Shown here: in pieces, positions 3,691-57,719 of the stretch
Layout of the letters: each line of letters opens with the position of its first letter
Position numbering within the stretch: position 1 is the first letter of the stretch
Source: Lunularia cruciata
Lineage: Eukaryota; Streptophyta; Marchantiopsida; Lunulariales; Lunulariaceae
Assembly: GCA_948567375.1 (NCBI GenBank)
Contig: OX419758.1
Span: 39,695,473 to 39,759,472, forward strand
Direction of reading: 5' to 3'
Length of the DNA stretch: 64,000 nucleotides
Notes under the pieces: generated by a model
Database searches by the model: none
Seen by the model: only the letters and a program-made list of their open reading frames with translations
Told to the model about the DNA's origin: nothing
Translations under genes and position numbers: made by a program

Positions 3691-3699
3691 GTACTGTAT

Positions 3700-3835
3700 C
3701 AAACCACCACCTAGAGATGTCTGGATCTAAAATAGACCTCTCCACATTGGTCCTCTGTAACTCCAGACTGACTAGTATAGCCTTCCCCAACATAAGGGGC
3801 TACGCACCGGAGTCTAACAAGACTCTTTGTGGTGT
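3700..3835 (-). pseudogene. Retroviral-type aspartic protease (copy 1)
   Basis: The minus strand encodes LLDSGA with Asp-Ser-Gly-Ala at 3804-3815, the active-site signature of retropepsins, followed by PLMLGK. A TAG sits after the Ala where Gln is expected. The plus-strand copy has the Ser and Ala of this motif changed (LLDFGV). The protease would process the Gag-Pol precursor. Confidence 0.75.
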
Positions 3836-3957
3836 ATAGACCTTCCTTGAAGGTCCTACCAAACGGAAAATCCCCCTCTAGTTATCCAATAGGACAACAC
3901 CTGGTGTGAACCGTGCTCTCTCAAAGGCTGGTCTAGATGGCAACTCCTCTAGTCTAG

Positions 3958-4697
3958 TGTAATACTCCGAGGACAAGAGAAGAGAGAAAACATAGATTGC
4001 ACACTCAAACATTCAATGCTCCAAGGGAGCACCTTTTCTTTATTATATAGACAAAGAGGATCTCCTCCAAGGAAGCTCCACCATAGGATTAGGAACACAG
4101 ATAGGTGGCATGTCGGCAAGCTCCACCCTTGGATTCCTCACTTGGATGGGTGACATGTCTGGTCTAGGGCCTATCTGGTTGGTCAAACAAGCTTTGACCG
4201 GAGGGAATCTTTTAGGGAATCTTCCTGTAGGAATCTCAAAATCACGTGAGTAAGGTACCATTGGAAAGCTCTCGACAAGACAAAGCAAGGGGGAGGGAAG
4301 GCCAGCCTGTCCTTTATTGGGGGGGGGGGTTTGCACATTTTCGAGGCCTAATTCATCCGTTTAGGCCTCCAAAATTACCTTCAAAGATTTCAGGCATATT
4401 TTGGTTCCTACTCTATTAGTAGAAGTCCCCTTTTGGTGATACCTCTTTCTGATCTGTTTAGTCCATCATATGTAACATCCTTCCATATGTTACCAAACCA
4501 GTTCTCACCTTTAAATCATATGTCTAGCTATTGGTTCTAAGGTTCTCCAATCTATTTCGGTTTCTGCCCTATTAGTAGAAGTACTCTTTTAGTGATACTT
4601 CTATCTTATCTATTTTGACCATCATGTATAACATCATTCTAGATGTTATCAAACCAAATTTCACATCTAAAGCATATGGCTAGCTCTTGGTATTACA
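3958..4697 (-). mobile_element. Solo LTR of the chromovirus family (740 bp) with 5-bp target duplication
   Basis: The sequence begins TGTAATACTCC and ends GGTATTACA, and is flanked by perfect TCTAG duplications at 3953-3957 and 4698-4702. It is homologous to the LTRs at 62670-63407 and 63693-64000, in the same minus orientation. Removing it joins the two halves of the DNMT-gypsy gag/protease region as in the plus-strand copy (44240-44290). A single LTR with intact duplications indicates insertion followed by LTR-LTR recombination. Confidence 0.93.
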
Positions 4698-6720: not shown

Positions 6721-6799
6721 GAACTCTATCGTGACACGGTAACCACAACTGCAATTGCAACCACAAACAGGAACCACCAAATGCAACCGCAAACCGCAA

Positions 6800-6925
6800 C
6801 CGCAAGTACTCCACCAAGTGCAAACACCACCAAGTGCAAACACCAACCAAGCACTACCAAGTGCCAACACCAACCGAGCACTACCAAGTGCCAACACCAA
6901 CCAAGCACCACCAAGTGCCAAAACT
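6800..6925. repeat. 27-bp minisatellite in the retroelement leader
   Basis: About four tandem copies of a 27-bp unit close to ACCAAGTGCCAACACCAACC plus AAGCACT, with earlier copies shorter and more diverged and a CAACCGCAA-rich stretch at 6740-6810 before them. It lies between the 5' LTR and gag of copy 1. The other leader copy at 56380-56460 has only a degenerate version. Confidence 0.85.
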
Positions 6926-7255: not shown

Positions 7256-8223
7256 TGACATTTGATATAATTGGAGTATCTATCTACTTCTTGAGCTACG
7301 ATGATCACCAAGGATCACCGAGGATCGGATCAATGTTCTTCTCACCAAAATCTGACATAATTCCTTCACAAAATTTGATGTAAAATGTGACATAAATTCG
7401 ACATAAATCCGTAAAGATGGCCTAAAATGGTTGATCGCTAAATCCTCCACTAAATCCTCTACTAACTCTTCATTCAAGCCAAATTGGAAAAATATGTTTC
7501 ATCTAATCTTTAATTCATGAGGATATGCTCCCAACTCCACCTTCAATTTCAGTTTCTGAGCTCAACTCGCAACAAATTGGTCATGAGCTCAAAATCACAA
7601 CTACCACTTGAAAATTGCTTCTTCCTTGGCTCCAAATTTTGCCAACTCTTTCGCACACACACTCTCTCAATGAAATCTGAACTACTCGATCGAGATACCA
7701 TGATCCACCAAGCTTGGATATACCACCAACACTCGTAGTTCATGCACCCAATTTCCCCCTGACTCACTTCTCTAATGTAATCAGATGGTTTACAACTCGA
7801 ATCAACTGAACTCAGATCAATACTTGATCTGATCTTAAACAACTTGTCAATAACAGTGCATTGATTACCATCAAGCCACACCTACTCTAGCTAAGAGACT
7901 CCAGGTGACGCTCACCGGCTTTTTGTCCACTCTAGCTAGGAACTCGAAAGCGCAACATCAGAGAAGTGAGCTTTCTAGAGCTGCACTTCCAGGGTATACT
8001 CCTAATTTCTACCTAAGCCTCGTCCCAACGGTCCCGCTGATGGCATACCTGATTGTGCGGACTATGCAAGTGACGGTGTGCCTCACCATGAAGTCAAAAC
8101 ACTAAATACAAAATCTGACCGTTGGAAAATAGTCCATAAGTAACTGCCAAAATACCTCTAACTATTATCATTAGAATTCCAATGTCCGAGCAATCTAAAT
8201 GAGACACTACAAATGGCGTGACA
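7256..8223 (-). repeat. 5' LTR of DNMT-gypsy copy 1 (968 bp)
   Basis: In the sense direction it starts TGTCACGCC at 8223 and ends ATCAAATGTCA at 7256. It is homologous to 56776-57719 over its whole length, and partly to 49775-50217 and about 24300-24660. The TG...CA termini and the primer-binding-like site beside its inner end define it. Confidence 0.85.
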
Positions 8224-24932: not shown

Positions 24933-25038
24933 TCAAGTACATCAAGGACATAACCACTATCTTCGAGGAATCACCGTGAGGGAAGGAGTCAAACATGCCA
25001 TATGCCATCCTCTCAAACAACTATCACACATCATAAGC
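24933..25038 (-). pseudogene. PHD-finger remnant at the end of integrase (copy 2)
   Basis: The minus strand encodes MMCDSCLRGWHMACLTPS, then a Val-Ile-Pro stretch, Trp-Leu-Cys-Pro, and a terminal Cys-Thr-stop at 24933-24935. It matches the PHD finger at 49357-49497, including the stop position. About 48 nt with the first Cys pair are deleted, and two codons are stops (TAG before Trp; TGA where the plus copy has Arg). Confidence 0.85.
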
Positions 25039-25069
25039 CTGCATGTACCATTGCCAAGCTTGGGTCCAT

Positions 25070-26210
25070 CAAACCATCAATATTTGAGAGGTGGCATTGT
25101 ACACAATTGCACATGTAATCTTTCCACAAAACACCATCATTTCCTTCTAACATAAGGATTTTAAAAGGCCAAACCTTATGCACTCTCAAGATAGTTCAAC
25201 TTATAGTCACATCAAGAGTTATCAATGAAGTTTATTGTAGATAGACATAATCAATTGTATGGAATTGATGGCACCAAGGGTCTATACTTTCCACTAGAAA
25301 TAGTCGTATAATATAAAGTATCTCTATGTTGAGCAATTGTTAAGTTCTCAAAGGCCATTGGCATCACTCTTCAAAAGATCTCTGTATGTTGGGAATGTAC
25401 ACTCATCCATACATCCGGATCATCCAAGTCCAAAACTACAATCGGATCACAATGAATAGCTGACGTAAATTTAGATCTTGTCTATAGAATGAGAAGTAGG
25501 GACAGAAGGATGCTAAGGAGGATCACTATGAATGGTTATAGGTAAATTTGGATCTTGTCCATAGAGTGAGAAGTAGAGAAAGAAGGATGCTAAGGAGGCT
25601 TGCTGACTAAAACAAATAGCCCATAGGCAGACCATAGACTAAGGTAACCAAGGAAGATCCCAATCTCCCAAATATCCTCTCTACAAGCCATACTTATGCA
25701 ATTTTCTTTTCATCATCTAAATCACTCTCTTTGCTAAACCATTTGCTTTAGTGATCTCAAGAGGTAGTACAATGATCAATCAAGACCTTGTTACAAAAGA
25801 CTTGAAACTCTTCTAAGAATTTTGTACCCTAATCAATCAAGACCTTAGCTACTGTAACAAAATGATGAAGATATTTGATCCAAGAGTAAGTATGTTGCTC
25901 CTTTAGTGGACTTGTCAAGAAGGGTCAGCAACTCAATTCACTTAGACAAGTGCTCCACCATAACAAAAACATATTGATGTTATCTCACAATCAATGGTAA
26001 AGGTCAAGCAAAGTCCAAACTCTACTAGTTACACAACTCCATGATAAGTTATGGGTCTAACTATGGCGTAAGAGCATTCAATAATGCTCTAACTTGTTCA
26101 CAAACCACAAATCTAGCAATAAACTACTATAAATTGATTTGCATGCTACACCACCAATAATGACTTTGAAGTAGCTATTATTAAGTGTAGAACATGATTA
26201 ATTACAAGAA
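25070..26210 (-). pseudogene. pol: Integrase of DNMT-gypsy copy 2 (decayed)
   Basis: The nucleotide sequence aligns in reverse with plus-strand positions 48440-49340, including the C-terminal module just upstream of the PHD (25080-25200). No open frame of useful length remains. Confidence 0.7.
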
Positions 26211-26211
26211 T

Positions 26212-27130
26212 ACACTAAGGGAATGTTGAAGAGTCAATAAAAGAACATATCTTCATATTACAAGATTTTATTTATGGGAGTGAATAGAAAGATAGTTCAC
26301 ATTGAGATCCATATCTATGTGAATACAAAAAACAAGAGGTAAACCTTATCTTGGTGGAAGCCTCTTCTCAAGGGCTTTCCATACACATCAAGATCATGGA
26401 AAATAGAACTATAGAAAAGAAGTTAGGATAGAACTCAAGATGCTCACTTGAATTCAAGATATATGTGTCTTGTAGGAGCTACAAGATTCTATTGCGGGAG
26501 CTATGGGACCTACATGATGGTTGCGGGACATATGAGAATGGTTCTTAAGGGCATGGCTACAAGACCTATGGGCATGAGACTTGTGGGAAGGCTACAAGCA
26601 TGGTCTCTACTTGTGGAATTGAGTGAGGTGATGTGTATCAATTGGTACCAAAGAATCTAGGGTTTAGATAGAGGATCAATTTGCACCACATGTTCCAAAA
26701 CTAAGGAATGCTGAAGAGTTTGTAAAGGAACAAATCTTCATATTACAAGATTCTATTTCTAGGAGTAAATAGAAAGATAATTCATGTTGTGACCCATATC
26801 TATGTGAATACAATGCAAATGAGGCAACCTTATCTTGTTGGAAGCCTCTTCTCAAAGGCTTTCCATACACATCAAGATCATAGAAAATAGAGAATTTATG
26901 TTCACTTGAAGTTCAAGACAAATGTGTTTGGCGTGAGCTATTAGACCTATGGGATGGTTGCAAGACATATGAGAATGACACTTATGGGCATGGGACTTGT
27001 AGGAAGGCTACAAGCATGGTCTCTACTTGTGGAATTGGGTGAGGTGATGTGTATCAATTGGTACCAAAGAATCTAGGACCCTATATTCTTTGGTAATTAG
27101 ATACAAGATCAATTTGCACCACATGTTCCA
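26212..27130 (+). repeat. Tandem ~486-bp direct repeat with LTR-like features
   Basis: Two direct copies start with TG(T/C)TGAAGAG at 26223 and 26709 and share about 420 bp ending GATGTGTATCA (26640 and 27056). Each is followed by ATTGGTACCAAAGAATCTAGG, which resembles a primer binding site, and then by GATCAATTTGCACCACATGTTCC. This is LTR-interior-LTR-interior, as expected if a TRIM recombined into a tandem array. No coding capacity. It interrupts the copy 2 integrase/linker region. Confidence 0.65.
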
Positions 27131-27626
27131 AAATTAGATAAAGGTTTCCAAGTGCAATTGTATATATAGTTTAAGTATTGGTACTTTGTGTGACTTTTGA
27201 CAATTTCTTGATCAACAATTTAAGAATAAATAAAAATACCATGCAATTATGGATGTATGTACACTTTGGCAGAACCATATGAAATTTGGTGTAATTTCTA
27301 TGCATGCTTTTCTTGACTAGATTGATGAATAATTTTTACTCTATTGCATAGCCAGATTTGGATTTTAGCTACTCTCTTAAATTCCTAGTTTCATCTTTTC
27401 TCCTAACAAATATATGTCTACTTTGCTCCAAAATGTCCTTGCTTCTCATAAGCATGTCATACCAATTGTGGTCTTTGAGATGGAAGGGATACTACTTGCA
27501 CCTTACCATCTTCCAATACTCAAAGAAAATGTCTACCTTCCAACCTAAATTGACTAGCTTGTTGAAGGACACTTCCTCTCTCTTTAGCACTAATTATGTC
27601 ACCTATAATACCAATGCAAAGATAGT
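27131..27626 (-). pseudogene. RNase H-integrase linker of DNMT-gypsy copy 2
   Basis: Positions 27400-27621 align in reverse with 48070-48300 and with the left edge of the window. 27131-27400 is diverged, with no other feature seen. The stretch ends at the target duplication ATAGT (27622-27626) of element A. Confidence 0.6.
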
Positions 27627-35147: not shown

Positions 35148-35899
35148 CCTTTGCATACCCAATCACATCAAAAATCTCTTCTAGTGTAAGTCTTAGTCTA
35201 TTGATTGATAGGAGAGTAATCTCCACACATTTTCATATCTGAGTAGTTGGCTGGATATCCTTCTTGGCTGGCATCATTGTAGCTAAAGAGCATACTCTCC
35301 ATGTTAAATCTCTACCAAACTAGCCTCAAAAAATCTCTACTCTAGCTTTAAATCAATATTATCTCCATATCATTATACTATAAGGACATAAAATGCTGAT
35401 ATATCACTAGTTAGCTCAATCCAAATACCAAGTCCTTTTAAAGCACTTAAATCCTTCAAACTAAAGTCAAAACAACTTGTGTAGCTCCTCAAGAACTTCT
35501 GAACTTCTATATTTCCCCTCTTGTGAGCTTAGGTCTAATGTTTGGCTCCAAAGTGTTTGCTTTATAAGTGTTGTGGAGGTAGAAGGTGCATTGATTGGTT
35601 GTTATACCTAGACTTGAGGAGCAATATTGTCATGCAACCAATTGCTAGAGTCCTCAACCTTGGAGAAAAAACTCCCTCTATTCTAACTACAAGCTCTACA
35701 TGTCATGTAGCTACATCCCAAATAGAATAAGAGTGTAATCCAAGTAGACCATGCTCACTTGGATGTAGTCTCACTAGTAGTCAATGATTGTGGCCCAAGA
35801 ATACCATGTACATTCAACTTGTCCCTCCCAACATGTGCTTGAATATTTTCTACAAGCAAAGAGCTGATAAGTATTCAAGTGGTGATGCTTCTTAAGTAT

Positions 35900-38100: not shown

Positions 38101-39130
38101 ATGCATCTTATGCTACTCAACCAATCAAAAGCTCACAATCTAGGTCAAAAAATTTAGATCCATGACCTAACCCAACACTTGACACTTAGATGCCTTTGAT
38201 ATTGTTGAAATGGTAGTGATACTACAACAGAAATCCATTTCTTGCTCTTTCTCTCATAAGCATTGAGCTCCACCAATTCTTGTAACTATGAGTCCTAAAC
38301 AAGTCCAAGATCTCCCTCTCAATAAGCATGGGATGTTAAGAAACTCAAGAGTGTAGGTAAAGAAACTATAGGCTTCCCAAGAAGGTTCACCATTGCAATA
38401 GATGACTATCAACAAATCCCACTATTTGAGATTAGCATCCAACATCCAAGATATCATCAACAATAGGTGAGATGGTCAATACCTACCATCATAAGCATGT
38501 TATAAAACCTCTCCATGTAAGAGGTTTGTCCATCAAAGAAAAATATGATTAGCTTTTGATCCAACTCTAGCTACATCCAACAACACAACAAGTCCAATCC
38601 AAGACCAAACTTGATGTATTTGTGTCACGACTCGTGTGCAAGAATCACACATTGAAGCGATATTTTCCAAAATGTATGCTAGAAAAACTGCTTGATGATT
38701 TTGGAGATGTTGTAATATATAGAATCTCCCAAAACAAGCAAATTTCACCACATATCTCTCTAGATCCATATCTCTCTAGAGATATGGATCTAGAGAGAAA
38801 TATTTGATAGTATGGTTTCTTGGTAACCCTTGACTATTGATATGGGCAATAACTTAGGATATCAATAAGCCAAGTGTGTCACATGATGCAGAGAGACTCA
38901 TCTAGTAGTCTCATCTCTCTCCACATTCAAATACCTCTAAACATGTATGCTTGCTTGCAAGATTGAAACTAGTCCAATATTGATCCCACCAAACAAATTA
39001 AATAAGTATACTCCTTCATTGGATATTGCCAAGAAATAGGGGTGGTTTCCAAAGGTATTAAGGTAATAAAATTTGGAGGATCCTCCTCAAATTGGTCCAT
39101 TGGTGGTACGAAGGCTCCACTCCAAGCTTA
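38101..39130 (-). pseudogene. DNMT domain and upstream unknown domain, DNMT-gypsy copy 2
   Basis: The minus strand keeps motif VI as YILENIASM (ENI at 38659-38667) and the following VLLDVARVGS block (38560-38600). Motif I lies near 38960-39010 and the unknown upstream domain continues past 39130. Stops and frameshifts are numerous. Confidence 0.78.
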
Positions 39131-40171
39131 TTATACCAATTGATATGCACATTGCTACAACTTCACATTTGAACTCCACAACGCAATATCCAATGTGGAT
39201 GGAACAATTGTACTTGTACTCTAAATCCAAGTGATCTCTTATGGTAATGAGGTATCCTTTATATGGACATTCCCCTCCAATAACCATTGAAAGTTAAGAT
39301 TGATACCATGGTCTTTGACTATAGTGAGCTAAGACTACCACTACTAAGGCACATTGGTAGGAAATATACACATCTCTCACCTGATTGCCAACTTGGCCTA
39401 TAGCGAGTTGTCTCCTCCTAATAGTCAATACTAAAACCCATGGAGTATAACATTGCTCCTCCCACTAACACATAATATGACTTTGTTATTGTTGCAATGG
39501 CTTGAGCTCTCACGATAGAACTATCAATAAGATGAACTTGGACGATGATCTCCTCACATGTGATGTATTGTGTGGAACTACCCCTAGAGATGTCTTAATT
39601 TGAAATGGACACCTCTCAATACAAGTCTTTCATAGCCCAAGACCAAGAGTTTTAGCCTTTGTTAACATAAAGGACTAAGCACCAAAGTCTAATAAAATGC
39701 TATATGGTGTATAGACCTTCTTTGACTATCCAACCAAACTGAAAATATTACTCTGGTTATCCAATAAGACAACCCCAAATATAAACATAGTTTGCTAAAA
39801 TGCAAGTACAATAAGTAACTCTTCTAATCTAGCAATTGTTGCCTGCCACAAGCCACTAGTAGAAAAATGGATTCCATGATCATCAACCAAGCTGGCTCTA
39901 CCATCAACCACTTCTGCACTAGAAATAAGAACCACACCATCCCTACTCTCATAAAGGGTGGCAGCCAATTGGAATTCTAGAGCATTGTCAACTCCCAATG
40001 TCAACATGGTGTTGGTTGAGAGCAAAGGAGACTGCATAATCAATTGAGCCACTCGCAACAACTTGCTAGATAAAATTTTGGTCAAAGTAGGTAGCTAATT
40101 AGTATCTAGTCCTTCCTACACTCCATCACTACCTACTACACTTGCATTAAGACATCTAGGAGACATAGATG
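39131..40171 (-). pseudogene. Protease and end of gag, DNMT-gypsy copy 2
   Basis: Minus-strand sequence aligns with 3240-3950 and 4698-5040 of copy 1. A 96-codon stretch at 39795-40085 matches the region between zinc knuckles and protease. It has no solo LTR at the place where copy 1 has one. Similarity to DNMT-gypsy ends at about 40171. Confidence 0.7.
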
Positions 40172-44101: not shown

Positions 44102-44339
44102 ATTCTGGTTGGCTGCCACACTTTGTGAGAGTAGGGATGATGCGGTTCCTACTACTAGGGCAGAGGTGGTTGATAGTGGAGCTGACTTAGTTGAGGAGCA
44201 TGGGATTCATTCAGCGACCAATGGTTTATGGCAGGCAGCAGCGGCTAGACTGGAGGAGTTGCCAGCTAGACTGGCCTTTGGGAGAGCATGGTTCACACCT
44301 GGTGTTGTCCTATTGGATAACCAGAGGGGGATTTTTTTG

Positions 44340-44540
44340 TTTGGAGGGACCTTCAAGGAAGGTCAATACACCACAGAGAGTCTTGTTAGACTTTGGTGTG
44401 CAGCTCCTTATGTTGGGGAAGGCTGCAATTGTCGGTCTGGAGTTACAAAAGACCGATGTAGAGAGGTGTCCATTTCAGATCCAGACATCTCTAGGTGGTG
44501 GTTCGACATAGTACATCACACGTGGAGAGCTTGTTGTCTA
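44340..44540 (+). pseudogene. Aspartic protease (plus copy)
   Basis: VLLDFGVQLLMLGK at about 44380-44420 matches the LLDSGA box of copy 1, with Ser and Ala changed. It is followed by LELQKTDVERCPF. The substituted active-site triplet would make it inactive. Confidence 0.7.
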
Positions 44541-44568
44541 GGTTCAGCCTGGTCATCCGATTGATAGC

Positions 44569-45087
44569 TTGGTGGTGAGAGCTCAGGCTATTGCAACAAT
44601 AGCTGAGTCATATGATGTGCTAGTTGGGGGAGCAATGTTATATCCCATGGGTTTCAACATTGACTATTGGGAGGAGATAGCCTCTTATAGACCTGGTTGG
44701 CAGTCTGGTGAGGGACGGGTATGTTGCCTACTAGTATGCTTCAGTAATGGCAGTCTTGGCTCACTACAGTCCGGGACCATGGCAACATCAATTTTAGCTT
44801 TTAGTGGTGCAGTTACTTGGCCTGGTGACTTGTTGGAGTGGAACGCCCATGCAAAGGATACTCCAGTACCAAGGAAGATCACTCGGCTTTGGAGTACAAG
44901 TGGGGTTGTTCCATCCACCTTGGATGTTCCATTGTGGAGTTCAGAGGAGGTGTTGCAGCAGCATGCAAATCATTTGGTGCAGCAAGCTTGGAGTGGAGCC
45001 TTTGTACCATTAGGAGATGAGGATGAGGATGAGCCTCCAGAGGCAACTGCTTTGACACCTTTGGATACCACACTCATTGCTTGGTAG
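44569..45087 (+). pseudogene. Conserved domain of unknown function upstream of DNMT (172 open codons)
   Basis: An open stretch that includes GFNIDYWEEIASYRPGWQSG and an acidic tail just before DNMT motif I. The same block is in copies 1, 2 and 3 (3107-3690, about 39010-39250, about 52103-52532). It is in frame with the DNMT after one TAG at 45087. I do not recognise it. Its constant place suggests it works with the methyltransferase, or is the C-terminal end of the protease module. Confidence 0.7.
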
Positions 45088-45108
45088 TATCCAATAGAGG
45101 AGATATGT

Positions 45109-46110
45109 CTATTGGAGTTGTTCAGTGGGATTAGCACCGGACTAGTTGCGGTGTTATAGGTGGGTATACAAGTACAGAGGTACTTGTATGTAGAGAGAGA
45201 TGAGACTGCTAGGCAAGTCTCTCTACATCATGTGGCACACTTGGCCTATCAGTATCCGGAGTTATTACCGATGTCAGCAATCAAAGGTTACCAGAAGGTC
45301 CTACCAGCAGACATTTCCTTACTGGGGGCGCATGACCTAGAGAGACATGGGCCTATTCACTTGTGATTTTTGGATGGCCATGTCAGGGACATACATGTGC
45401 GGGCCGCAGTTTGGGCTTTAGGATCCTCGTTCTGGTGTGTTTTGGGAGATGCTACGGATACTACAACATCTCCAGGTTCATCAGTCCGTTTCTCCAGCTT
45501 ACCTTTTGGAGAACGTGCCTTTGATGGGTGATTCTCGCACCATAGTGGTGGCAAGTACACATCAGGTCCATTCTTGGATAGGACTTGCTGTATTGTTAGA
45601 TGCAGCCAGAGTGGGATCACGAGCTCATTGTCTTCGTCTTTGGTGGATAAATCTCTTACCCAGAAAGGTTTTACAACGTGCTTATGATGGGATTTAGCAA
45701 CTTGACCTCATCCTTGTTGATGACATCTTGTGATGTCAAGCGTCAATCTCAAATGGTGGTAGTGGCTGATAGGTCACCTACGGCAATGGTGAACCTAGTA
45801 GGACAGCCTAGAGCTGCATTTCCCACACTCATGAGTTTCCCAGGCTCTCATGCGTTTTGAGAGTGAGGACCTGGACTTGTTTGGGACTCATAATTATAGT
45901 AGTTGGTGGAGCCCAACGCTGATGAGAAAGAGCGGGCGATGGGTTTTTGCACCGGTATTACCGCTATTCCAGCAAAGTTAGAGGCATCCATGCGTTAGGT
46001 GTTAGGTCAGGCTATGGACCTGAATTGTTTGACCTGGATTGTGAGCCTTGGCTTGGTAGAGCAGCATAGGATGCACTTGATAGGCATCACCACTTGGACA
46101 CTTGTGAGCA
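45109..46110 (+). pseudogene. C5-cytosine DNA methyltransferase domain, DNMT3-like motif order (plus copy)
   Basis: Motif I LLELFSGISTG starts at 45109. Motif IV is FGWPCQGHTCAG, with the catalytic Cys codon at 45381-45383 and Gln after it, followed after a one-base deletion by DPRSGVFWEML. Motif VI is LLENVPLMGDS, with ENV at 45509-45517. The motif VIII-like block VLLDAARVGSRAH lies at about 45594-45632. The C-terminal part (NADEKERAMGF, then QAMDLNCLTWIVSLG) corresponds to motifs IX/X. Length of about 330 codons fits a complete catalytic domain. Motifs are in canonical order, unlike plant DRM. Stops such as TAG at 45158-45160 and frameshifts make this copy non-functional. It is sandwiched between protease and RT of the same element. 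Confidence 0.9.
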
Positions 46111-46412
46111 CTATGCCTATCAAGACAATTCAGGCACATGTTGGGGGCGATGGACCGAGTGGACTTGGTATTCTTGGGACATAGCCAGTAGCTACTAGGG
46201 AAGGTGGTCTACTTGGAGTCCATCTAGGTGAGCATGGGCTACTTTGATTACATCCTTGCTCCACTTGGGATGCAGCTAGAGGATGTATGGAGCTTGCAGC
46301 CAAAGTGGAGGGAGTTTTTCACACAAAGGTTGGGACCTCTAGTGGTCGGAGGCATGACACTATTGCTCCCAAGGGCCTAGTGTAGTAGCCAGTTAGTACC
46401 TCTTCCACTCAT

Positions 46413-47495
46413 ATGACAGTTACAAAGGATACTTGGGAGCAAAATCTTGGACCTAAGCTTATTGGAGAGGAAAGACGGAGGGTTTTGAGGTTCTTGAGGA
46501 GTCACACGAGTTGTTTTGCCTTCAGTATGAAGGATTTGGGTGCTCTGGAGGGACCTAGTATACATATTGAGCTGACTAGCGATACACTAGTTTTTTGACG
46601 TCCTTATCGCTATAGTGACATGGAGAGGACATTGATTCAGAGCCGGAGTAGTGACCTTTTTGAGGCTGGTTTGGTAGAGATTTCACATGGGGAGTATGCA
46701 TCAGCGACAATGATGCCAACCAAGAAGGATTTGCATGGCAACTATACAGATAGGTAGATGTGTGGAGATTACCATCCTATCAACTGACATACCAGGGCTG
46801 ATTGGTATGCCATGCCTACAACGGAGGAGATTTTTGATGCGATTGGGCATGCAAAGGTCTTTAGTACTTTGGATCTTTGAGCTAGATATCATCAATTGCC
46901 AATCAGGGAGGAGGATAAGTCCAAGACATCATTTTGGGCTATTGATCCTCACGGCAAGGATGTGTTATCTTAGTGGAGGTTCTTACCATTTGAGTTGAAG
47001 AACGCTCTTGCTGAGTTCTAGAGGGTCATGGATAAGATCCTAGCTGGATTGGATTTTGCTCGGTGTTATATTGATGACATTTTGGTCTATAGCACTACTG
47101 TGGAGGAGCATGAGAGATAGTTAATGGAGGTGTTTGAGAGGTTGAGATCTCATGGACTTAAATTACATCTTGGGAAGTGTAGGTTCTTTCACGAGCAGGT
47201 TGAGTATTTAGGTCACACTATCTACCCCGGAGGACTTGGTGTTTAGCAGACCAAGGTGGAGGCTATTGCATGTATTTCCCGGCCTACGGATGTGAGCAGA
47301 GTGCAAGCATTCCTTGGGTTGGCAAACTTCTATCGCCGCTATGTTAGAGGATTTAGTGCCATTGCCAAGGCCTTGACGAAGCTGACCAAGCTTACACAGG
47401 AGTGGTGTTGGGGAGATGAGCAGGAGAGAGCTTTTGTAGAGCTCAAGGAGAGGTTGACATGTGCTCCTATTTTGAGGAGACCGATCAAAGGATGA
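46413..47495 (+). pseudogene. pol: Reverse transcriptase (plus copy)
   Basis: Ty3/gypsy RT: an N-terminal segment at 46413-46600, a fingers/palm region, YIDD catalytic box at 47067-47078, LGHTIYPGG at about 47210-47235 and the connection VQAFLGLANFYRRYVRG at 47296-47346. In-frame TAGs lie at 46971-46973, 47019-47021, 47118-47120 and 47244-47246. Confidence 0.9.
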
Positions 47496-47880: not shown

Positions 47881-48229
47881 ATCAGACCGGACCACATTGG
47901 CATGGTGAGACAAATGAGGAGATGGTGCCAAGTTGGCATGCATCGGCCTTTCTGTGTATATTTCAAAGGCTTTGGTGGTATCTCTTTCAGTGCACACAAG
48001 AGGAGTTATTGAGGTCACAGATCCAAAGAGTGAAGATATTGGTATAGTTCAGCGAGACATTCATGATGATGTCTTAGTGATGGACTATCTTCGTACTAGT
48101 GTTGTGGGTGGCACAGTTAGGGCCAAGGAGAAAGACCGTGTTCTTCAGTGAGCCAGACGGTTTAGATTGGAGGGCAGACACCTTTTGCGTGTATGGGAGG
48201 ATGGTAGAGTGCAAGTAGTACCACTTCCA

Positions 48230-49300
48230 GCATAAAGACCATAGTTGGTCCGTCATGCTCATGAAGAGCTAGGACATTTTGGAGTAAAGCGTACATATAG
48301 CTTACTCTAGAGTCATTATTGGTGGTGCGGTATGCAGACCAAGGTACAACAGTTTGTTGCTAGATGTGTGGTTTGTGACCGAGTCAGAGCATCATTCAAT
48401 GCTCCTACGCCACAATTACACCCATTACCTATCATGGGATTGGGTTACCGTTGGAGCTTGGACTTTGCTGGACCTTTACTGTTGACTGGGAGACATCATT
48501 GGTATGTTTTGGTGATGGTGGAGCACTTCTCCAAGTGGATTGAGTTGGTGGCACTTCTTGACAAGTCTAGTGAAGGGATAGCTTACTTGTTCTCGGATTG
48601 AGTTCTTAGTCATTTTGGTGCACCAGTTGAGGTTTTGACTGATCAGGGTACAGAGTTCTTGGGAGAGTTTTAGGTCTTGTGTGACAAGGCTTTGATTGAT
48701 CACCGTACTACCTCCGAGATCACCCTGAGGCAGATGGCTTAGAAGAGAGAGTGGTTCAGATGGTGAAGAGAGGATTGCAAAAGTATAGTTTGCAGAGAGG
48801 CCACTTGGGAGATTGGGATCTCCAGTTACCTTGGTTGGCCATGGACTATCAGTTCAGCCGGCAAGCCTCCTTAGCATCCTTCTCTCCGTACTTTCTACTC
48901 TATGGACGAGATCCAAATTTACCTACAGCCATTCGTCGAGATGCTACTATAGTTTTGGACTTAGATGACCTAGATGTATGGATGAGCGTATGTTCTCAGC
49001 GGGCAGAGATCTTTCAAAGAGTGATGCCGATGGCCTTTGAGAACTTGGCGATTGCTCAGCATAGAGATACTTTATGCTATGCTACTATTTGAGGAGGAGG
49101 TTATAGACCCTCAATCCATCAATTTCATCTAGGAGACTATGTATATCTACAATAGACAGCACCGACAACACTTGATGTTTTGACAAGCCGCACTATCTTG
49201 AGAGTGCGTGAGGTTTTGCCATTTGGAGTCCTTGTGTTAGAAGGACGTGATGGTGTTGTTTGGAAGGACCATGTGCGCAATTGTGCGCCATGCCACCTCC
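48230..49300 (+). pseudogene. pol: Integrase core and C-terminal module (plus copy)
   Basis: An HHCC zinc-binding region starts at HEELGHFGVKRTY (about 48260) and ends CVVCDRVRASF (about 48370-48400). The core has SLDFAGP (first Asp, about 48460), TDQGTEF (second Asp, about 48640) and a Glu-Arg-Val-Val-Gln block (about 48745), the D,D-35-E arrangement. A C-terminal module (LRVREVLPFGVLVLEGRDGV, then WKDHVRNCAPCHLP) ends just before the PHD. Several stops and frameshifts. Confidence 0.87.
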
Positions 49301-49356
49301 CAAACATTGATGGTACTATGGACCTTAGCTTGGCACTTGTACATGCAAGCTTGAGG

Positions 49357-49497
49357 TGTATGTTATGTGGCTCTTCTAGTAGAGCTGCTACTATGTTAAT
49401 GTGTGATAGCTGTTCAAGAGGATGGCATATAGCATGTATGACTCCTCCCCTCACGTTGGTTCCTCAAGGACAGTGGTTATGTCCTAGATGTACTTGA
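49357..49497 (+). pseudogene. C-terminal PHD finger fused to gypsy integrase
   Basis: In the same open frame as the end of integrase (open from 49180 to 49497) is a C4HC3 finger with spacing C-x2-C-x11-C-x2-C-x4-H-x2-C-x14-C-x2-C. It includes MLMCDSCSRGWHIACM and the conserved Trp two residues before the last Cys pair (WLCPRC). The stop TGA at 49495-49497 follows one residue after the last Cys. PHD fingers usually bind histone H3 tails, modified or not at Lys4. Here it sits where chromoviruses carry a chromodomain, suggesting integration targeting. All eight zinc ligands are intact, although other parts of the element are decayed. A remnant in the same place in copy 2 shows it is a family feature. 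Confidence 0.93.
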
Positions 49498-49774: not shown

Positions 49775-50217
49775 TGTCAAGCCATTAGTAGTTTTGCATC
49801 TAGATGCTCGGACACTGGAGTTCTAGTGATAGTAGTTACAGGCATTTTGGCCATTACTCATAGACTACTTTCCGACAGTCAGATTTCAGGTTTAGGGTAC
49901 TGACTTCATGGTGGGACCCACCATCACTTGCACCGTCCACACCATTGGTTGTGCCATCAGCAGGACTGTTGGGAGGAGACCTAGGTCAAAATCAGGGGTA
50001 TACCCTAGCAGTGCAGCTCTAGAGAGCTCACTTCTCTGATGTTGAGCCTTTGAGTTCCTAGCTAGAGTGGACAGAAAGCCGGTGAGCATTACTTGGAGTC
50101 TCTATGCTAGAGTGGGTGTGGCTTGACTGTAATCAGTGCACTATTGTTGGCAAGTTGTTGAGGATCAGACCAAATATTGATCCGAGTTTGATTGATTTGA
50201 GTGGTAAACAATCTGAT
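49775..50217 (+). repeat. Partial LTR of DNMT-gypsy (443 bp)
   Basis: It starts TGTCAAGCCATTAGTAG and matches the first half of the LTR at 7256-8223 in reverse. Similarity stops at CTGATTA, where a second copy of the 3'-UTR block begins. Confidence 0.78.
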
Positions 50218-50323
50218 TATTATGGCACTTGAGAGTCTATGTATGACTTATGTGTGAGTTGTGCTTCTATTGTGTATGATGTTGACAGCAATGTATGTTG
50301 TGTAGCAATGTATATACGCATGA
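50218..50323 (+). repeat. Second copy of the 106-bp 3'-UTR block
   Basis: Almost identical to 49669-49774, in direct orientation. The differences are few and mostly transitions. It ends where LTR-B homology begins. Confidence 0.9.
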
Positions 50324-52102
50324 CAACCTGTACTCCAAGCTTCCTCTAATATGTACTTCAGCCTTCAACCAATTTGTACTTCAATTGGGGTAATTCTATG
50401 TTTTTTGACAAGGAAAACTCTATGTAACTTAGATAGGTATACCTTTCACTATACGACTTGTATTTCAATGTTGTAGAACTCAATGAAAGCATGTGAAATA
50501 ATATTTTCAATCATATAAAATATGCCATAATCTGATCACTACAACTTCCTTGACGAGCTCTCAATTTGGTAAGTTTTCTATAGTTTTCACCCTAATTTTG
50601 AAATCCCTAATTTAAGGTTTGCTCTTGGTTTTGGGTAGCTTTCCCTAGATTTTTGGATCAATGGTGCACTTAATCCTCAAAAACACTCCAGCTACCTAAA
50701 ATTGTCAATCATAGACATACAAATAGGAGAATTGACACTTAATCATGATAAAAGATAGAAATGCTCTATCGAGGTCATGATAGTATTTTCAATAGAGTTT
50801 GTTGCATTAGCTCTCACTCTCCATGGACCCAAAGTCAACCAAAATTTCACAATAGCTGGTTGCACCCTTGTCTAAACCTATATAAATTTTAGTACTCTAA
50901 TCCAACCCTAAATGTTACATATGGATCAATTCCTAAGCTGGGCTAACTTGTAAGTTGTGCAGACTGAGGTATGCTTGACCCAAGACCTTGAATTGTCTAT
51001 TTGAGGAATTCACATGAAACCTTTGCATAGAAGTGAAAACCCTAGCGACCAACAATACTGGAAATTTTCACAAGGTGATTCAGACCACAACTTTAGGAGT
51101 GACCAAATCTTCAAACCTGATCAGCATCTCATCTCCAACTCCTCAGTTTCCAAAGTTCCAACTTCAATTGGCCAAATCCGATTTGAGATTCATCAAACCC
51201 CTAAAATCTCTTGATCTCACCAATACAAGCGCTCTATCAACTCTCCAACCCAATTGATAGATTCTTGAAGATGTCTCATGAAGCTCTCTAAATCACCTAT
51301 TTTGTGCTCATGGGTATGAATTTTACCCCCTTGATTCAGTTGATCATATCTCCCAAAGAATTGGCTCAAATCACTCAATTTTAGTCTCTTAATTATAGCC
51401 CGTCAGCTCCTCTCTCCAATTGTGGTTTTCTATCTTTGAATGCCCTTCCAAAACTCCTTTGATGATCTAAAAACTTCCAACTTCCTCTCTTGGGACCCAA
51501 TCTCTTGCAATTTTGTCATTCACTCTCTTTACTTTTTGACAAGTGGACCCCACAACTCCACCTTGAAGCTCATGAGTTAAATTGAGCCATTTTCCATCTA
51601 CAAGAGCACATGGATTGTCAAGCCCTAGAATTGCTTGTAAGTAAGCACCAGAAGAACAATATGATCTGGGTTTTCCATCATCAACTTCGTGAATACTGCC
51701 CCAAAATGTTCCACCATTTGATCTCATAAGCTGTTGTGGTGTAAAATCTGAAGCCTAATGAGAAAAGGATTTGAGAGTGGCAAATTGGGAGCATGGGACA
51801 TCTCTTACTCAATTGACCTCTCTAATGCTTGGCCTCCATGCTCTGCTACAACTTTCACTCTCAATGTCTTCCTCTTGCTTGAGACTCCTCTAACTAAAAC
51901 ACACTTCCTTCCCAACTCTCCACCATCTATATACATAAGAGCCTTCAAAGAAAACAAGACCATAATCCATGTGGCCAACTGTATACATGTACATAGATTG
52001 CTCACATGGCAATAGCTCAACCGTGTGATCCATCATTCAACCTATTTCATCTTTACAAAGATAAATCACATCTTCGTAGGCTACACAAAACACAACACAA
52101 CA
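50324..52102 (-). mobile_element. LTR-B, truncated (1.8 kb)
   Basis: Homologous to 52960-54746 throughout. The sense start (right end, ...CACAACA) is present, but about 430 bp corresponding to 52533-52960 is missing at the left, where it abuts the 106-bp block. Confidence 0.82.
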
Positions 52103-52532
52103 CCACTTGTAATAGCACAACTAGTTTAATGTTGATCTCACCAATCAACTCCAATAGACATACTCCCTCTACTAAATATTGCCAAGACATGAGTGTGGTA
52201 TCTAAAGGTGACAATGTGATCAACTCCAAAGACTCATCCTCACACTAGACTCCTGGCGGTACAAAGGCTCCACTCCAAGCCTACTACACCAATTGATCTG
52301 CATGTTGCAATGCCTCCTCTAAACTCCATAATGAAACATCCAAGGTGAATGGCATGATCCCATTCAAACTCACAATCTAAGTGATCTCCTTTGGTATTGG
52401 AGTATCTTTTGCATGGATTTTTCTCCTCCAATAAGTTACCAAGCCAAGAAACAAAAAAGTTGGAAGTTGAAATTGATGTTGCCATGGTCCTTGAATATAC
52501 TAAGCCAAGACTACCACTACTAAAGCATATGG
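52103..52532 (-). pseudogene. DNMT-gypsy copy 3 fragment: unknown domain and start of DNMT
   Basis: It aligns with 3061-3480 of copy 1 on the same strand. Motif I is only weakly readable near 52125-52170. It lies between two LTR-B copies. Confidence 0.75.
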
Positions 52533-54746
52533 TGTCGTACTTTCTTTTCTCTCTTTGGGAATACACAAAGTGCCTAGCTGTGGAGACTACAGATCAAAGG
52601 CTTGAGGTAAACATGTAATGAATTGACTGAACACGCGTGTGACCCTATTGCCTCCTTTCCCATAACTAATATTCTTGCTATCGAGAAGGGTAGTACCGGG
52701 TAACCTAACATGTCATCACAACACGCACTCTTGGTCTGTTGGCTATCACTTCAAGCATAACCAAGGAGAAATACACAGCACTCCTAGAAGGAAATAATCT
52801 AAGCGCAACGCCCACACACCAATCCAAGCCAATTGGGCGTACAAACAAGCATACAAGCACAAAGAGGATCCAATCACAAGAATAAGGCAACAACTCTTTG
52901 TAGTTTTTGTCAGAAAAGAGCTTTAGAGCCTTCTTGCTCTATCATCAAGATCATTTCAACCTGTGCTCCAAGCCTCCTCCAATCTGTACTTCAAAGCTCA
53001 ACAAATTTCTACTCCATGTGGGGATTTTCTAAGTCTTTTTGATAGGGAAAACTCTGCACAGCTCATATGAAAATAACTATTTTTGTATATCTTGGATTCA
53101 AGTGTTCTAGGATTTAATGGAAAGCATGTGAGATATTATTTCCAATAATATAAAATACACTTCAATCAGATCACTATAACTTGCCTGAAAAGCTTTCAAA
53201 GTTGGCCAGGGTTTTGCAACTTTCACCCTAATTTCAAAATCCCATTTTTAGGGTTTGCTCCTGGTTCTTGGCAAATTTTCCCCAGATTTCTGATTCAAAA
53301 ATACAATTGATCCTCACAAACACTCTGGCAACCTGAAACTCTCAATCAAAGTCATAAGTTAAGAGAATTGATATCCAATCCAAAGATGAAAGATAAAATT
53401 GCTCTACCGAGCTTATGATAGTATCTTCAACCAAATTTTTTGCATCAGATCTCACTCTTCATAGATCTAAAACCAACCAAATTCTCAAAAATAGCTAATT
53501 GTGCTATTTTCTAAACTCTTGCAAATTTTGGTAGCCTAATCTAACCCCAGTCCCTAGATGTAGATCAATTCTTGGGTTGGGCTAACTTGTGAGCTCTACA
53601 AACCCAGGTATACTTGATCCAAGACTTTGATTTCTCTATTTAAAGAGTTCACATGAAAACTTTACACAAAGGTGAAAACTCTATCCACCAACAAATCTGG
53701 AAATTTTAATAAGGAAATTTGAACCACAACTTGGGAAGTGACCAAAACTCCAAACCTGATCATTAGCTCTTCTCCAACACCTTACATCCCATAAGCTTCA
53801 ACTTCAATCAATTAAATATGATTTGAGATGGACCCAAAACTAGAATTTATTTCACTTAGTATTGTAAGCACTTTATCTACTTTTGATCCCACTAACAGAT
53901 AGTGAAAATGTCTCAAGATCCCTCAATTGACTACTTTGTGCTCTTGGGTATGAATTTAACCCCCCTTGACTCAGTTGATCATATCCCTCTCATATTCAGA
54001 GCATATTGTGTGATTTCTATCTCCAGATTGTAGCCGGTCATCTCTTCTTTCCAACCATCTCCTTCTTTCGCCAAATGACCTCCCCAAACTCCCTTGATGG
54101 TCAAAAAACTCCAGACTTCTCTCTTGGGACCCAAGCTCTTGCACATTTGTCCTTTAGTCTTTTTACTTTTTGACAAATGGACCCCACAACTCCACCTTGA
54201 AGCTTATGAGCAAAAATTTAGTCATTCCCCAACTATAGAAGGACATATATTGTCAAGTCCCAGACATTTTCATATGTAAGCACAGGAAGGACAATAGGAT
54301 CCGGATTTCCCATCACCGACTCCACAAACACCACCCCAAAACGTGCTACCAACCAATCCCGTAAGTTGTCACGGTGTAAAATCTGAAGCCTGATGAGAAA
54401 GGATTCAGGAGTGGCAGATAGGGAGCATGGGACATCTCATGCTCAAATGCTTCCTCCAATGCTCTAACACTCACTCTTTGCTACAACTCTCACTCCCAAC
54501 GTCCTTCTCCCCTCAAGACTCTCCAAACTAAAACACACCCATCTCTCCACTTGCCCTCATCTTTATTCATCAGAGCCCTCAAACATGATAAGATTGTAAC
54601 CCACGTGGCCAATCACATACATGTACATAGATGGCTCACATGGCAACATCTCATCCGTCAGATCTAGCATACAACCTACCCCACTAACATGGAGATAAAC
54701 TATGATAAGTCACTTTTTTATAGCCTACGCAAACCACAACACGACA
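52533..54746 (-). mobile_element. Solo LTR-B (2214 bp)
   Basis: On the plus strand it begins TGTCGTACTTTC and ends CACAACACGACA. The flanks (CATATGG on the left, ACGGGTAGGCG on the right) fit a diverged 5-bp duplication of the ATTGG found unbroken in copy 1 near 3470. No convincing ORF. Confidence 0.83.
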
Positions 54747-55788
54747 ACGGGTAGGCGACATACCCATCCCTCACCTGACTGCCAACTTGGTCTATAAGAG
54801 GTTGTCTCCTCTCAATAGTCAATATTGAAACCCATGGGGTATAATACTACTCCACCAACTAGCACATCATGTGACTCAACTATCATTGCAATAACCTAAG
54901 CTCTCACCACAAAGCTATTAGTTGGATGAGTAGGTTGAATCTAGATGACAAGCTCTCCACATGTGATGTACTATGTAGAACTACTCCCTAGAGATGTTTG
55001 GATCTGAAATGGACACCTCTCCACATTGGTCTTTCATAGCTTCAGACCAACAACTACAGCCTTCCCCAACATAAGGGGTTGCATACCAAAGTCTAGTACA
55101 ACCCTCTATAGTATATAGACCTTCCTTGAAAGTCCCACCAAATGGGCAATCCCCCTCTAATTATCCAACAAGACAACCCAAGTGTGAACCGCATTCACTC
55201 AAAAGCAAGTCTAGTTGGTAACTCTTCCAATCCCATTGTTGATGCCTACCATAACCCATTGGTCATTGAGCAGATCCCTTGCTCCTCAACCAAGTCAACT
55301 CCACTATTAACCACTTCTACTCTAGAAGCAAGGGCCACATCATCCCTACTCGCATAAAGTGTGATAGCCAATAGGAACACTGGAGCTGGATCAACTCCCA
55401 ATGTAAACATGTCATTGGTTGAGAACAAAGGAAAGCGCATAATCAACTGAGCCATCCTCAACATCAAGCTAGACTCAATCAATGTAGTAGCAGTGGCTGA
55501 CTAGCAAGAAGTCAATCATGAATCTCATTACCACCTACTACACTTGCACTGGGACGTATAGGAGCCATGGATGTTTTTTGTAGTGCCTTAGAGAGTATAA
55601 AAGACTAGGGGAGTTTGGCTTGTCTACCAACCTCTCCTCTCTATGGGTCCAACTCCACTAATGTTCCTCTAGGCTCTAGAGCACGTATTGCATTCCTAGT
55701 CATTATGGCAAAGGCATCTACCTATGCTGCTCCGCTCATGAAGACAAAGACATCTTTATCACCTGCATAAGAAGACAAGGAACCCAAC
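54747..55788 (-). pseudogene. DNMT-gypsy copy 3 fragment: protease and end of gag
   Basis: It aligns with 3475-3957 and 4698-5250 of copy 1, without the solo LTR found there. A 78-codon stretch (55246-55482) matches the pre-protease region. Confidence 0.75.
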
Positions 55789-56283
55789 TCCATCATACTC
55801 CTCCAAGGCTAACACTCCAAGTCTCAAACCATTGCTCACTAGAGAACTCAATGAGAGAGAGATAGTTACAAATGATGAGTACCTCTTCACCCCTAGTTTA
55901 TATACTTGTTTATTCACCAAAGTTACTAATTATTGAAGTAACTCAAGTTACTAGGCTAAAACTCAAATAAAATCAAAAGTCTAAAGGAATATCCATACTC
56001 ATGGGAATATTCTCCCAAGCATTTAGTCTTATCTTGACCTAACCATTAAGTCAAGGATTCTTTTACAAGAGTTATCCTTGGACTATAGAAGAATTCAAAA
56101 CAAAAAAGCTTATGGATCCAAGAGTTCTCTACTTGTTCCTCAAAGCCAAACACCTAGGAATAATACCAAGTCAATACACTAGAATCTAAAATAGTGGTGC
56201 TCATCTTTTCCACCTCCTCTAAAGTAAGGTACCATATATCTTAGCTATAGCTAACTTTAGCTAATCATGACTAATATAGAAAC
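55789..56283 (-). mobile_element. LTR-C fragment (~495 bp)
   Basis: It matches 43502-44020 on the same strand, including the block after GTTAGCCTTGGAGGAGTATG. Its sense start is missing: similarity ends at about 56283. Confidence 0.78.
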
Positions 56284-57719
56284 ATCTTTGATATTCATGT
56301 CAATCCATTGCATAGTGCAATGGATTGAAATGACTATCTTCTCCGGAATCCCCCAAGAACTCTATTGTGACAATGTAACCGGAAACTGCAAACCTCAATT
56401 GTAACTACCACAAGTACTCGACCAAGAATCATCAACTGCCACCACCAACCAAACACCACCCACTAATGTAACTCTAATTACAACTACTACACTAGGAGTA
56501 AGTGTAACATGTAATCTTCCATCACAACATGAACTCTCATGGTCTATAGGTCATCACTTCCTTCTCATCGGAGAGAAACATATATAGTTTGATTGGTCAT
56601 CACTCTTGCTTCACTATTAAGAGCACACTAGAGCACCAATCCTCTAAAGTCACAACACCTCACACAAATATGGTGCATAAACAAGAAGCAAAGAATGGAG
56701 GGGGTCCAATCATAAGAAGACTAAACAAAAACCCTCCATCTCATAAATCAACACTTGACTAACTTTGCCACCATTTGGCATTTGACATAATTGGAGTATC
56801 TATCTACCTACCTCCTAAGCTATGAGGATCACCAAGAATGGGATCAAACTTCTTCTGGCCAAAATCTGACATAGAACCTCCTTGAAATCTAATATAAAAT
56901 TTGACATAAAATTTGGCACAAATCCCTAGAATTGGTTGACTGCCAAATCCTCTACTAAATCTCTACTTGAGCCAAATTGAAAGGATGGGGATCTTCAAAT
57001 CTCTAATTTGTGGGAATGGGTTCTCAACTTCACCTTAAATTTTACCTTTTGAGCTCAATTTGCACCAACTTGGTCCTACTTTCACCTCTTGAGCTCAAAA
57101 TGAACACTACCACTTGAAATTGACTTTATTCTCAAGGAAATTTGGCTAGTACTTCTGCACATAATCACTCTAAAGGAAATCCAAATTACAATCCAAGTAT
57201 CAATGATCTACCAAGTTTGGCAATACCACCAACACCCTCAATTCCTACACTTAATTTCCCCTAACTCTCACTTCTTTGATGTAATCAATTCTTCATCCAC
57301 TCGAATTAACTCAAATCAAATCAATACTTGATCTTTCACTCAACAATCTGCCAACAACTAAGCATTGATTACAATCAAGCCACACCCACTCTAGCTAAGA
57401 TACTCCATGTGACGCTCGACGGCTCCATAGCCAAGAACTCAAAAGCTTAACATCAAAGAAGTAGCTCTCTAAGGTTACACCTCCAAGGCATACCCTTAAT
57501 TTTGACTTGCATCTTGAACCCTAATTGTCCCGTTGATTGCACACTTGATGGTGCAAACGGTGCAAGTGATGATGTACCTCACCATTTATTCATTACTCTA
57601 AATACAAAATCTGACCATCAACAAGTAGCATATGAGTAATTGCCAAAATACTTCTAACTACTAATACTACTACTCTAGCATCTGAGCAATCTAGGTGCAA
57701 TACTACAAATGGTGTGATA
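56284..57719 (-). mobile_element. DNMT-gypsy copy 3: leader and LTR
   Basis: The leader (56340-56775) matches 6711-7255. The LTR at 56776-57719 matches 7256-8223, with ends TGGCA... and ...GGTGTGATA, decayed from TGACA and TGACA. Most of gag is missing. The right end abuts a truncated chromovirus LTR. Confidence 0.8.

What the first reader, a model, noticed from the sequence alone, without database searches (positions are those of the whole stretch)
45109..46110. Cytosine DNA methyltransferase embedded in the pol of a plant Ty3/gypsy retrotransposon
Seen: C5 methyltransferase motifs I, IV (PCQ), VI (ENV), VIII and IX/X in canonical order over ~330 codons, placed between protease and RT. The same arrangement is in copy 1 (2110-3106) and copy 2 (38101-39010), with motif I region in copy 3. 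Known: retrotransposon-borne DNMTs have been reported in dinoflagellates and charophyte algae (de Mendoza and colleagues 2018, recalled from memory). I know of no standard description in land-plant gypsy elements. Inference: the element could methylate its own or neighbouring DNA. Canonical motif order argues against capture of a plant DRM and points to a DNMT3-like source.
Basis: partly seen in the sequence, partly recalled or inferred. Interest (0 to 1): 0.95.

Follow-up and report, generated by a model that had tools for sequence, protein, structure and literature searches.

The report
Liverwort retrotransposons carrying DNA methyltransferase
A liverwort-like genome holds many young jumping elements that carry a gene of DNA-methyltransferase type, placed so that it is probably made together with the coat protein rather than with the copying enzymes; similar elements have been reported from algae.

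Summary
Window 45088-46064 is a decayed C5 DNA methyltransferase (DNMT) between protease and reverse transcriptase of a Ty3/gypsy element; other copies in the window carry it too. The host is a liverwort-like 566-Mb genome with many young copies. All 16 copies read carry the DNMT, including 8 of 8 picked by their far end only. It is DNMT3-like by motif order, profile and predicted fold (of a relative), and constrained: dN/dS 0.33-0.44 in three old copies, 0.84-1.01 in the adjoining spacer. The DNMT thus ends a gag-protease-DNMT frame and is probably made at Gag level. The elements also have a C-terminal PHD finger, DIRS-like split direct repeats, TG..CA ends and 4-bp target duplications. Related element proteins occur in Marchantia, Riccia, Calypogeia and Sphagnum; in a green alga and metagenomes the DNMT follows RNase H instead. 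Closest published case: KnitGypsy-Dnmt3 of Klebsormidium. New variant of a known kind. Enzyme activity and readthrough are inferred, not shown.

The parts
44244..44748 (+). Main copy: aspartic protease (PR) region, decayed
   Evidence: tblastn with L013 PR, 80-85% identity. The protease label rests on the LLDSGAQ and DVLVG motifs (recalled) and on precomputed Pfam PF13650/PF13975 in related proteins; Pfam gave no hit for the window pieces
45088..46064 (+). Main copy: DNMT3-like C5 methyltransferase domain, decayed, with frame changes
46068..46382 (+). Main copy: fast-evolving spacer between DNMT and the stop
46383..46391 (+). Main copy: site of the leaky-type stop, now TAG TAG CCA (TAG CAG CCA in most young copies)
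46611..47390 (+). Main copy: reverse transcriptase
   Evidence: domain by Pfam on L013
47409..47810 (+). Main copy: RNase H
48185..49338 (+). Main copy: integrase and its C-terminal part
49339..49494 (+). Main copy: C-terminal PHD finger, followed by a stop
   Evidence: Pfam PHD 5.1e-6 on the window piece; 2.2e-10 on L013
49666..49770 (+). Main copy: repeat A of the split direct repeats
   Evidence: D20
49775..50219 (+). Main copy: repeat B2
50219..50325 (+). Main copy: terminal repeat A prime
2146..3123 (-). Copy 1: DNMT domain, one frame with 8 stop codons
1820..1828 (-). Copy 1: stop context TAG CAG CTA, read on the minus strand from 1828
396..1825 (-). Copy 1: pre-RT, RT and RNase H
3457..3958 (-). 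Copy 1: protease region
5467..6846 (-). Copy 1: gag-like and CCHC region
7778..8223 (-). Copy 1: left repeat B1
38116..39017 (-). Copy 2: DNMT domain (older subfamily)
39352..39833 (-). Copy 2: protease region
35602..35604 (-). Copy 2: homologous stop, here TAA followed by CAA CCA
   Evidence: placed by eye
24936..27519 (-). Fourth copy: integrase to PHD end, interrupted
52103..57717 (-). Fifth copy: B1, leader, protease, linker and motif I end of DNMT, interrupted by other sequence

Best explanation
These are remnants of a young, high-copy Ty3/gypsy family in a liverwort-like plant. Shown: the order is B1 repeat, gag-like part, CCHC, PR, DNMT, in-frame UAG, RT, RNase H, INT, PHD, then A, B2 and A prime. 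Inferred: most ribosomes stop at the UAG and make Gag-PR-DNMT, and a few read through to add RT, RNase H, integrase and PHD. The DNMT would then be packaged at Gag level and would methylate the element's own cDNA in the particle before integration, or host DNA near it. The ends are integrated by the DDE integrase, leaving 4-bp duplications; the PHD finger may guide integration to chromatin carrying a particular histone mark.
For: DNMT present in 16 of 16 genomic copies read; 8 of these were picked by a 100-aa INT/PHD end only. Catalytic PCQ kept in 16 of 16, ENV in 14 of 16, WWTN in 16 of 16. dN/dS of DNMT 0.44, 0.36, 0.33 in the three old window copies, like PR (0.49, 0.32, 0.28), while the spacer beside it gives 0.93, 1.01, 0.84; pooled over 15 young copies DNMT 0.42, RT 0.30, spacer 0.65. 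UAG CAR YYA in 16 of 16 copies, in window copy 1, and as UAG CAA UCA in L041, whose matched domains are 45-75% identical. CAR YYA is named as essential for TMV readthrough (passage of PMC2754532). PHD by Pfam. 4-bp duplications, read by eye, in 8 of 10 copies examined. Predicted fold of relative P0001 matches DNMT3A/3B best.
Against: No activity, RNA or protein data. The Klebsormidium element's DNMT gave no methylation in yeast, which its authors call inconclusive (PMC5890265, section 10). The C-to-T decay at CG and CHG is shared by other repeats of the window, so it is no trace of self-methylation. No RNA structure common to the two stop sites folded. The 16 young copies are closely related, so their shared stop counts as few independent observations. 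PHD in the main window copy gave dN/dS 0.72 and in the fourth copy 1.91, on 52 and 31 codons, so its constraint is unsure despite 0.20 pooled over young copies.
Confidence: 0.6

Rival explanations
1. The DNMT is a passenger kept by linkage, without a present role for the element.
For: No function shown; stops in DNMT occur in 4 of 16 copies read, all 4 among the 8 not picked by DNMT.
Against: dN/dS well below that of the flanking spacer in three old copies and like PR; kept in 29 relatives at 32-42% identity and there at another position in the polyprotein.
Confidence: 0.1
2. The DNMT acts for self-restraint or for hiding: it lets new copies be methylated and silenced early, lowering harm to the host.
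For: Copies carry the C-to-T decay expected from CG and CHG methylation. de Mendoza and colleagues list this kind of option (PMC5890265, section 11).
Against: Other repeats in the window decay in the same way; the young burst (150 of 150 scored matches at 99-100% identity) does not look restrained.
Confidence: 0.25
3. The UAG is an ordinary stop, and RT-RNase H-INT-PHD is made in another way, such as splicing or internal initiation.
For: No ribosome data; 6 deposited bryophyte gene models (P0128, P0131, P0133, P0136, P0138, P0151) join DNMT to later pol domains in one protein; no shared RNA structure.
Against: Same frame on both sides in L041 and UAG CAR YYA kept there at 45-75% protein identity.
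Confidence: 0.15
4. Assembly or contamination artefact.
For: L041, the distant relative, lies in a cyanobacterial bin and is probably misplaced.
Against: The window lies on a 69-Mb contig with a UvrD-type helicase gene; matches lie on eight contigs and insertions have 4-bp duplications.
Confidence: 0.02

Closest known systems
KnitGypsy-Dnmt3 of Klebsormidium nitens (de Mendoza et al. 2018, PMC5890265)
   Same: DNMT3-type domain in a gypsy element, without introns, under purifying selection, with DIRS-like repeat structure (section 9 with legend read).
   Different: Described there as within the Pol polyprotein ORF; here it lies in a gag-PR-DNMT frame before a leaky-type stop, in a land plant. 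Its sequence was not compared here.
SymbioDIRS-Dnmt3 / SymbioLINE-Dnmt of Symbiodinium
   Same: Retroelement-borne DNMT; SymbioDIRS-Dnmt3 is shown to methylate CG in yeast.
   Different: Different element classes; the authors call the acquisitions independent.
RIRE2, rice gypsy element named as a readthrough candidate (Ohtsubo 1999, cited in PMC2754532)
   Same: Plant gypsy element with a proposed leaky stop (passage read).
   Different: No DNMT or PHD known to me (recalled; its paper was not read).
DIRS/Ngaro/PAT split-direct-repeat elements
   Same: A1..B1A2B2 order of repeats (recalled definition; our repeats).
   Different: Those use a tyrosine recombinase (recalled); here a DDE integrase with 4-bp duplications.

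Membership tests
DNMT3-type C5 DNA methyltransferase | Motifs I, IV (PCQ), VI (ENV), VIII, IX/X in unpermuted order | tested here: met
   (motif numbers recalled)
DNMT3-type C5 DNA methyltransferase | Closer to DNMT3 than to DNMT1/CMT, DRM or bacterial enzymes | tested here: met
DNMT3-type C5 DNA methyltransferase | Methylates cytosine | not testable with these tools
   needs an assay
DRM (plant) | Circularly permuted motif order | tested here: not met
   Unpermuted in the window copies and relatives aligned; the host's own DRM at L002 is permuted
Ty3/gypsy LTR retrotransposon | PR-RT-RNase H-INT order with a DDE integrase | tested here: met
Ty3/gypsy LTR retrotransposon | Two equal long terminal repeats | tested here: not met
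   Left end has B only; right end has A, B, A
DIRS/Ngaro-type tyrosine-recombinase element | Tyrosine recombinase instead of DDE integrase, no target duplication (recalled) | tested here: not met
   rve integrase; 4-bp duplications in 8 of 10 copies
KnitGypsy-Dnmt3 lineage | Gypsy with DNMT3 and DIRS-like repeats | tested here: met
KnitGypsy-Dnmt3 lineage | Common descent of DNMT and RT sequences | not tested
   No protein named as Klebsormidium was among the 120 of 194 listed or the 86
Tobamovirus-type leaky stop | UAG CAR YYA with the frame open downstream | tested here: met
   Context in 16 of 16 copies and in L041
Tobamovirus-type leaky stop | Measured readthrough | not testable with these tools
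   needs a reporter assay

The most novel reading that the evidence does not exclude
A distinct lineage of retroelements, joining split direct repeats with a DDE integrase and a terminal PHD reader, captured a DNMT3 once. It then moved the enzyme from the RNase H-integrase junction (algal type) to the end of the Gag-protease frame (bryophyte type), so that the methyltransferase is made in Gag amounts before a leaky UAG and writes methylation on the element's cDNA inside its particle.
Probability: 0.35. Interest if true: 0.88.

Novelty: new variant of a known kind. Interest (0 to 1): 0.8.

Why it matters
[quoted passage not shown] This genome and deposited Marchantia, Riccia, Calypogeia and Sphagnum proteins show them in bryophytes; I saw no tracheophyte among the named hits listed. 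Young copies in a liverwort make the open question, what a transposon gains from carrying a silencing enzyme, directly testable in plants where CG, CHG and CHH methylation can be measured.

Tried and rejected
Chance reading: rejected by 194 homologs. DRM capture: rejected by motif order. Chance insertion in few copies: rejected, 16 of 16. Special methylation decay of this family: first seen as C-to-T excess at CG and CHG, then found in other repeats too, so not used as evidence. RNA structure after the stop: L013 z 0.02, L041 z -2.7, not consistent. Viral collection: 6 loci, partial matches at 33-42% identity; one of them (L035) looked at, with only a DNMT stretch. Genome collection: 2 loci; L041 useful, L042 only a short DNMT match. 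A rooted test of one capture against two was not done for RT (too few outgroups).

No chain named DNMT1 or CMT was listed, and no DRM or DNMT1 entry in the 50 rows; absence from that list of 50 excludes nothing.

Full report
1. The observation. The DNMT described at 45109-46110 is there, broken by stops and frame changes. Measured with the domains of a young copy, it spans 45088-46064 (+), between protease (44244-44748) and RT (46611-47390); further copies lie at 3123-2146 (-) and 39017-38116 (-), and a motif I end near 52179-52103 (-). Single stop-free pieces gave no Pfam DNA_methylase hit, 0 of 4. With X at stops and joints the main copy hits PF00145 at 3.1e-8; copy 1 does not. PDB's best match is DNMT3A, 2.2e-6. 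A protein search gave 194 proteins, 120 of them listed, the first 67% identical.

2. The genome. The window is C7:39695473-39759472 of a 565.8-Mb genome in 74 contigs. It has DNMT3-like, DRM-like and CMT-like sequences of its own at L001-L003 (named by motif and order, recalled). Its DRM is closest to three Riccia sorocarpa proteins, 63-74%, then Sphagnum, 54%, so I take the host to be a liverwort (inference; no name was given). Pfam DNA_methylase has 123 scored matches among 2161 candidates; at least 4 of these (L001-L004) are host-type sequences. A 100-aa integrase/PHD end has 150 scored matches, all at 99-100% identity, among 9151 candidates. These are lower bounds.

3. Architecture. All 16 have PR, DNMT, RT, RNase H, INT and PHD in that order. 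CCHC was found in 15; not in L016, where another gypsy-like frame lies upstream. In L013, RVT_1, RNase H, H2C2, rve and PHD are over Pfam's cut-offs; the gag label is weak (0.078, under the cut-off). In 10 of 16 copies the DNMT is free of stops with all five motifs checked intact, but 8 of these 10 were picked for long frames and only 2 of the other 8 qualify; 2 of 16 have a frame change in it and 4 of 16 have stops.

4. The stop. Between the DNMT frame and RT there is a TAG followed by CAG and CCA, TCA or CTA: UAG CAR YYA in 16 of 16. Copy 1 in the window has TAG CAG CTA; copy 2 has TAA CAA CCA; the main copy has decayed to TAG TAG CCA. L041, a 9285-bp contig in a cyanobacterial bin whose matched domains are 45-75% identical to ours, has TAG CAA TCA between the same two frames. 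CAR YYA after UAG is named as essential for TMV readthrough, and gypsy elements of rice are named as readthrough candidates (PMC2754532, two passages). I infer that the DNMT belongs to the Gag-level product.

5. Constraint. Against L013, dN/dS of the DNMT is 0.44, 0.36 and 0.33 for the three old window copies; PR 0.49, 0.32, 0.28; RT 0.28, 0.35, 0.52 (the last on 74 codons); the 106-aa spacer after the DNMT 0.93, 1.01, 0.84; PHD 0.72 in the main copy (52 codons) and 1.91 in the fourth (31 codons). Pooled pN/pS over 15 young copies: DNMT 0.42, PR 0.44, RT 0.30, RNase H 0.61, INT 0.64, PHD 0.20, spacer 0.65, linker before the DNMT 1.31, pre-RT 1.65. Dead copies inflate these values. The contrast with the spacer is strong in the old copies and weaker in the young ones.

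6. Ends. The left end has repeat B (about 449 bp); the right end has A (about 107), B, A. Element ends are TGTCACG and CACGACA; the inner A-B junction mostly reads GACAGCTGTC, the two ends joined by GC. Four-base duplications, read by eye, flank 8 of 10 copies examined; L018 and L024 could not be judged. B1-B2 identity runs from 94.0 to 99.1% in those eight. This is the repeat order of DIRS-like elements (recalled) with a gypsy integrase; the legend on KnitGypsy-Dnmt3 says the same of that element.

7. Relatives. Of the 86 proteins, 42 show RNase H before the DNMT (29 with RT-RNase H-DNMT-INT-PHD), 32 show PR before the DNMT (26 without RT or later domains), 10 show only DNMT before INT, 1 only DNMT, and 1 (P0206) DNMT before RT without a PR match. 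Element proteins with further domains are named from Marchantia polymorpha, Calypogeia fissa, Sphagnum fallax and, for RNase H before DNMT, the green alga Monoraphidium neglectum (P0205, a short DNMT match); the Riccia sorocarpa protein P0073 runs from DNMT into sequence like the start of our RT (by eye). DNMT pieces are also named from M. paleacea and S. troendelagicum. 'Bryophyte type' and 'algal type' are my labels; most members are unnamed metagenome proteins. In a tree of 75 rows the retroelement DNMTs stand apart from host DNMT3, DNMT3A and DRM with 100/98 support; the bryophyte type, with the long-branched P0206 inside, has 100/99; the algal type is not one clade there, weakly. The three reference rows fill under half of the columns and the DRM row is very long, so rooting is unsure. 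One capture with a move fits; two captures are not excluded.

9. Decay. Between L013 and the window copies C-to-T is 0.25 and 0.36 at CG, 0.21 and 0.28 at CHG, 0.04 and 0.06 at CHH for main and copy 1. Four pairs of other repeats of the window, not polarised, show higher rates at CG and CHG than at CHH too, 0.10-0.29, 0.17-0.37 and 0.02-0.23. It tells of methylated repeats generally.

10. What is known. I read sections 9-11 of de Mendoza 2018 and passages of PMC6338049, PMC10952607, PMC12344493, PMC8616336, PMC2754532, PMC8226279 and PMC5009743. In the listings (titles and abstract starts) I saw no land-plant DNMT-gypsy, no PHD-gypsy of this kind and no split repeats with a gypsy integrase beyond the Klebsormidium paper; the library lacks most subscription journals, so this is weak evidence of absence.

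Noticed in passing
window 10328-20300 (+): A host UvrD-type helicase gene (SRS2-like by recalled motifs; Pfam 3.7e-4 on one exon, under the cut-off), with pieces carrying motifs I, Ia, II/III, IV, V and VI separated by gaps of up to several kb.
   Followed up: partly
window 41106-42644 (+) and 29973-31161 (+): A 513-aa open frame, acidic and coiled-coil-like to the eye, without a Pfam match, with a diverged relative in the same window.
   Followed up: partly
window 49339-49494 (+); L013, L041: The elements end in a PHD finger after the integrase, also in the algal-type relatives.
   Followed up: yes
L041: A large part of a DNMT-gypsy element is a contig with repeated ends in a cyanobacterial bin, probably eukaryotic contamination of the bin.
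   Followed up: yes
L004: A second host DNMT3-like piece with a stop, perhaps a pseudogene or another gene.
   Followed up: no
window 50851-52107 and 53489-54741: A direct repeat of about 1.2 kb, copies about 2.6 kb apart, interrupts the fifth copy of the element.
   Followed up: no
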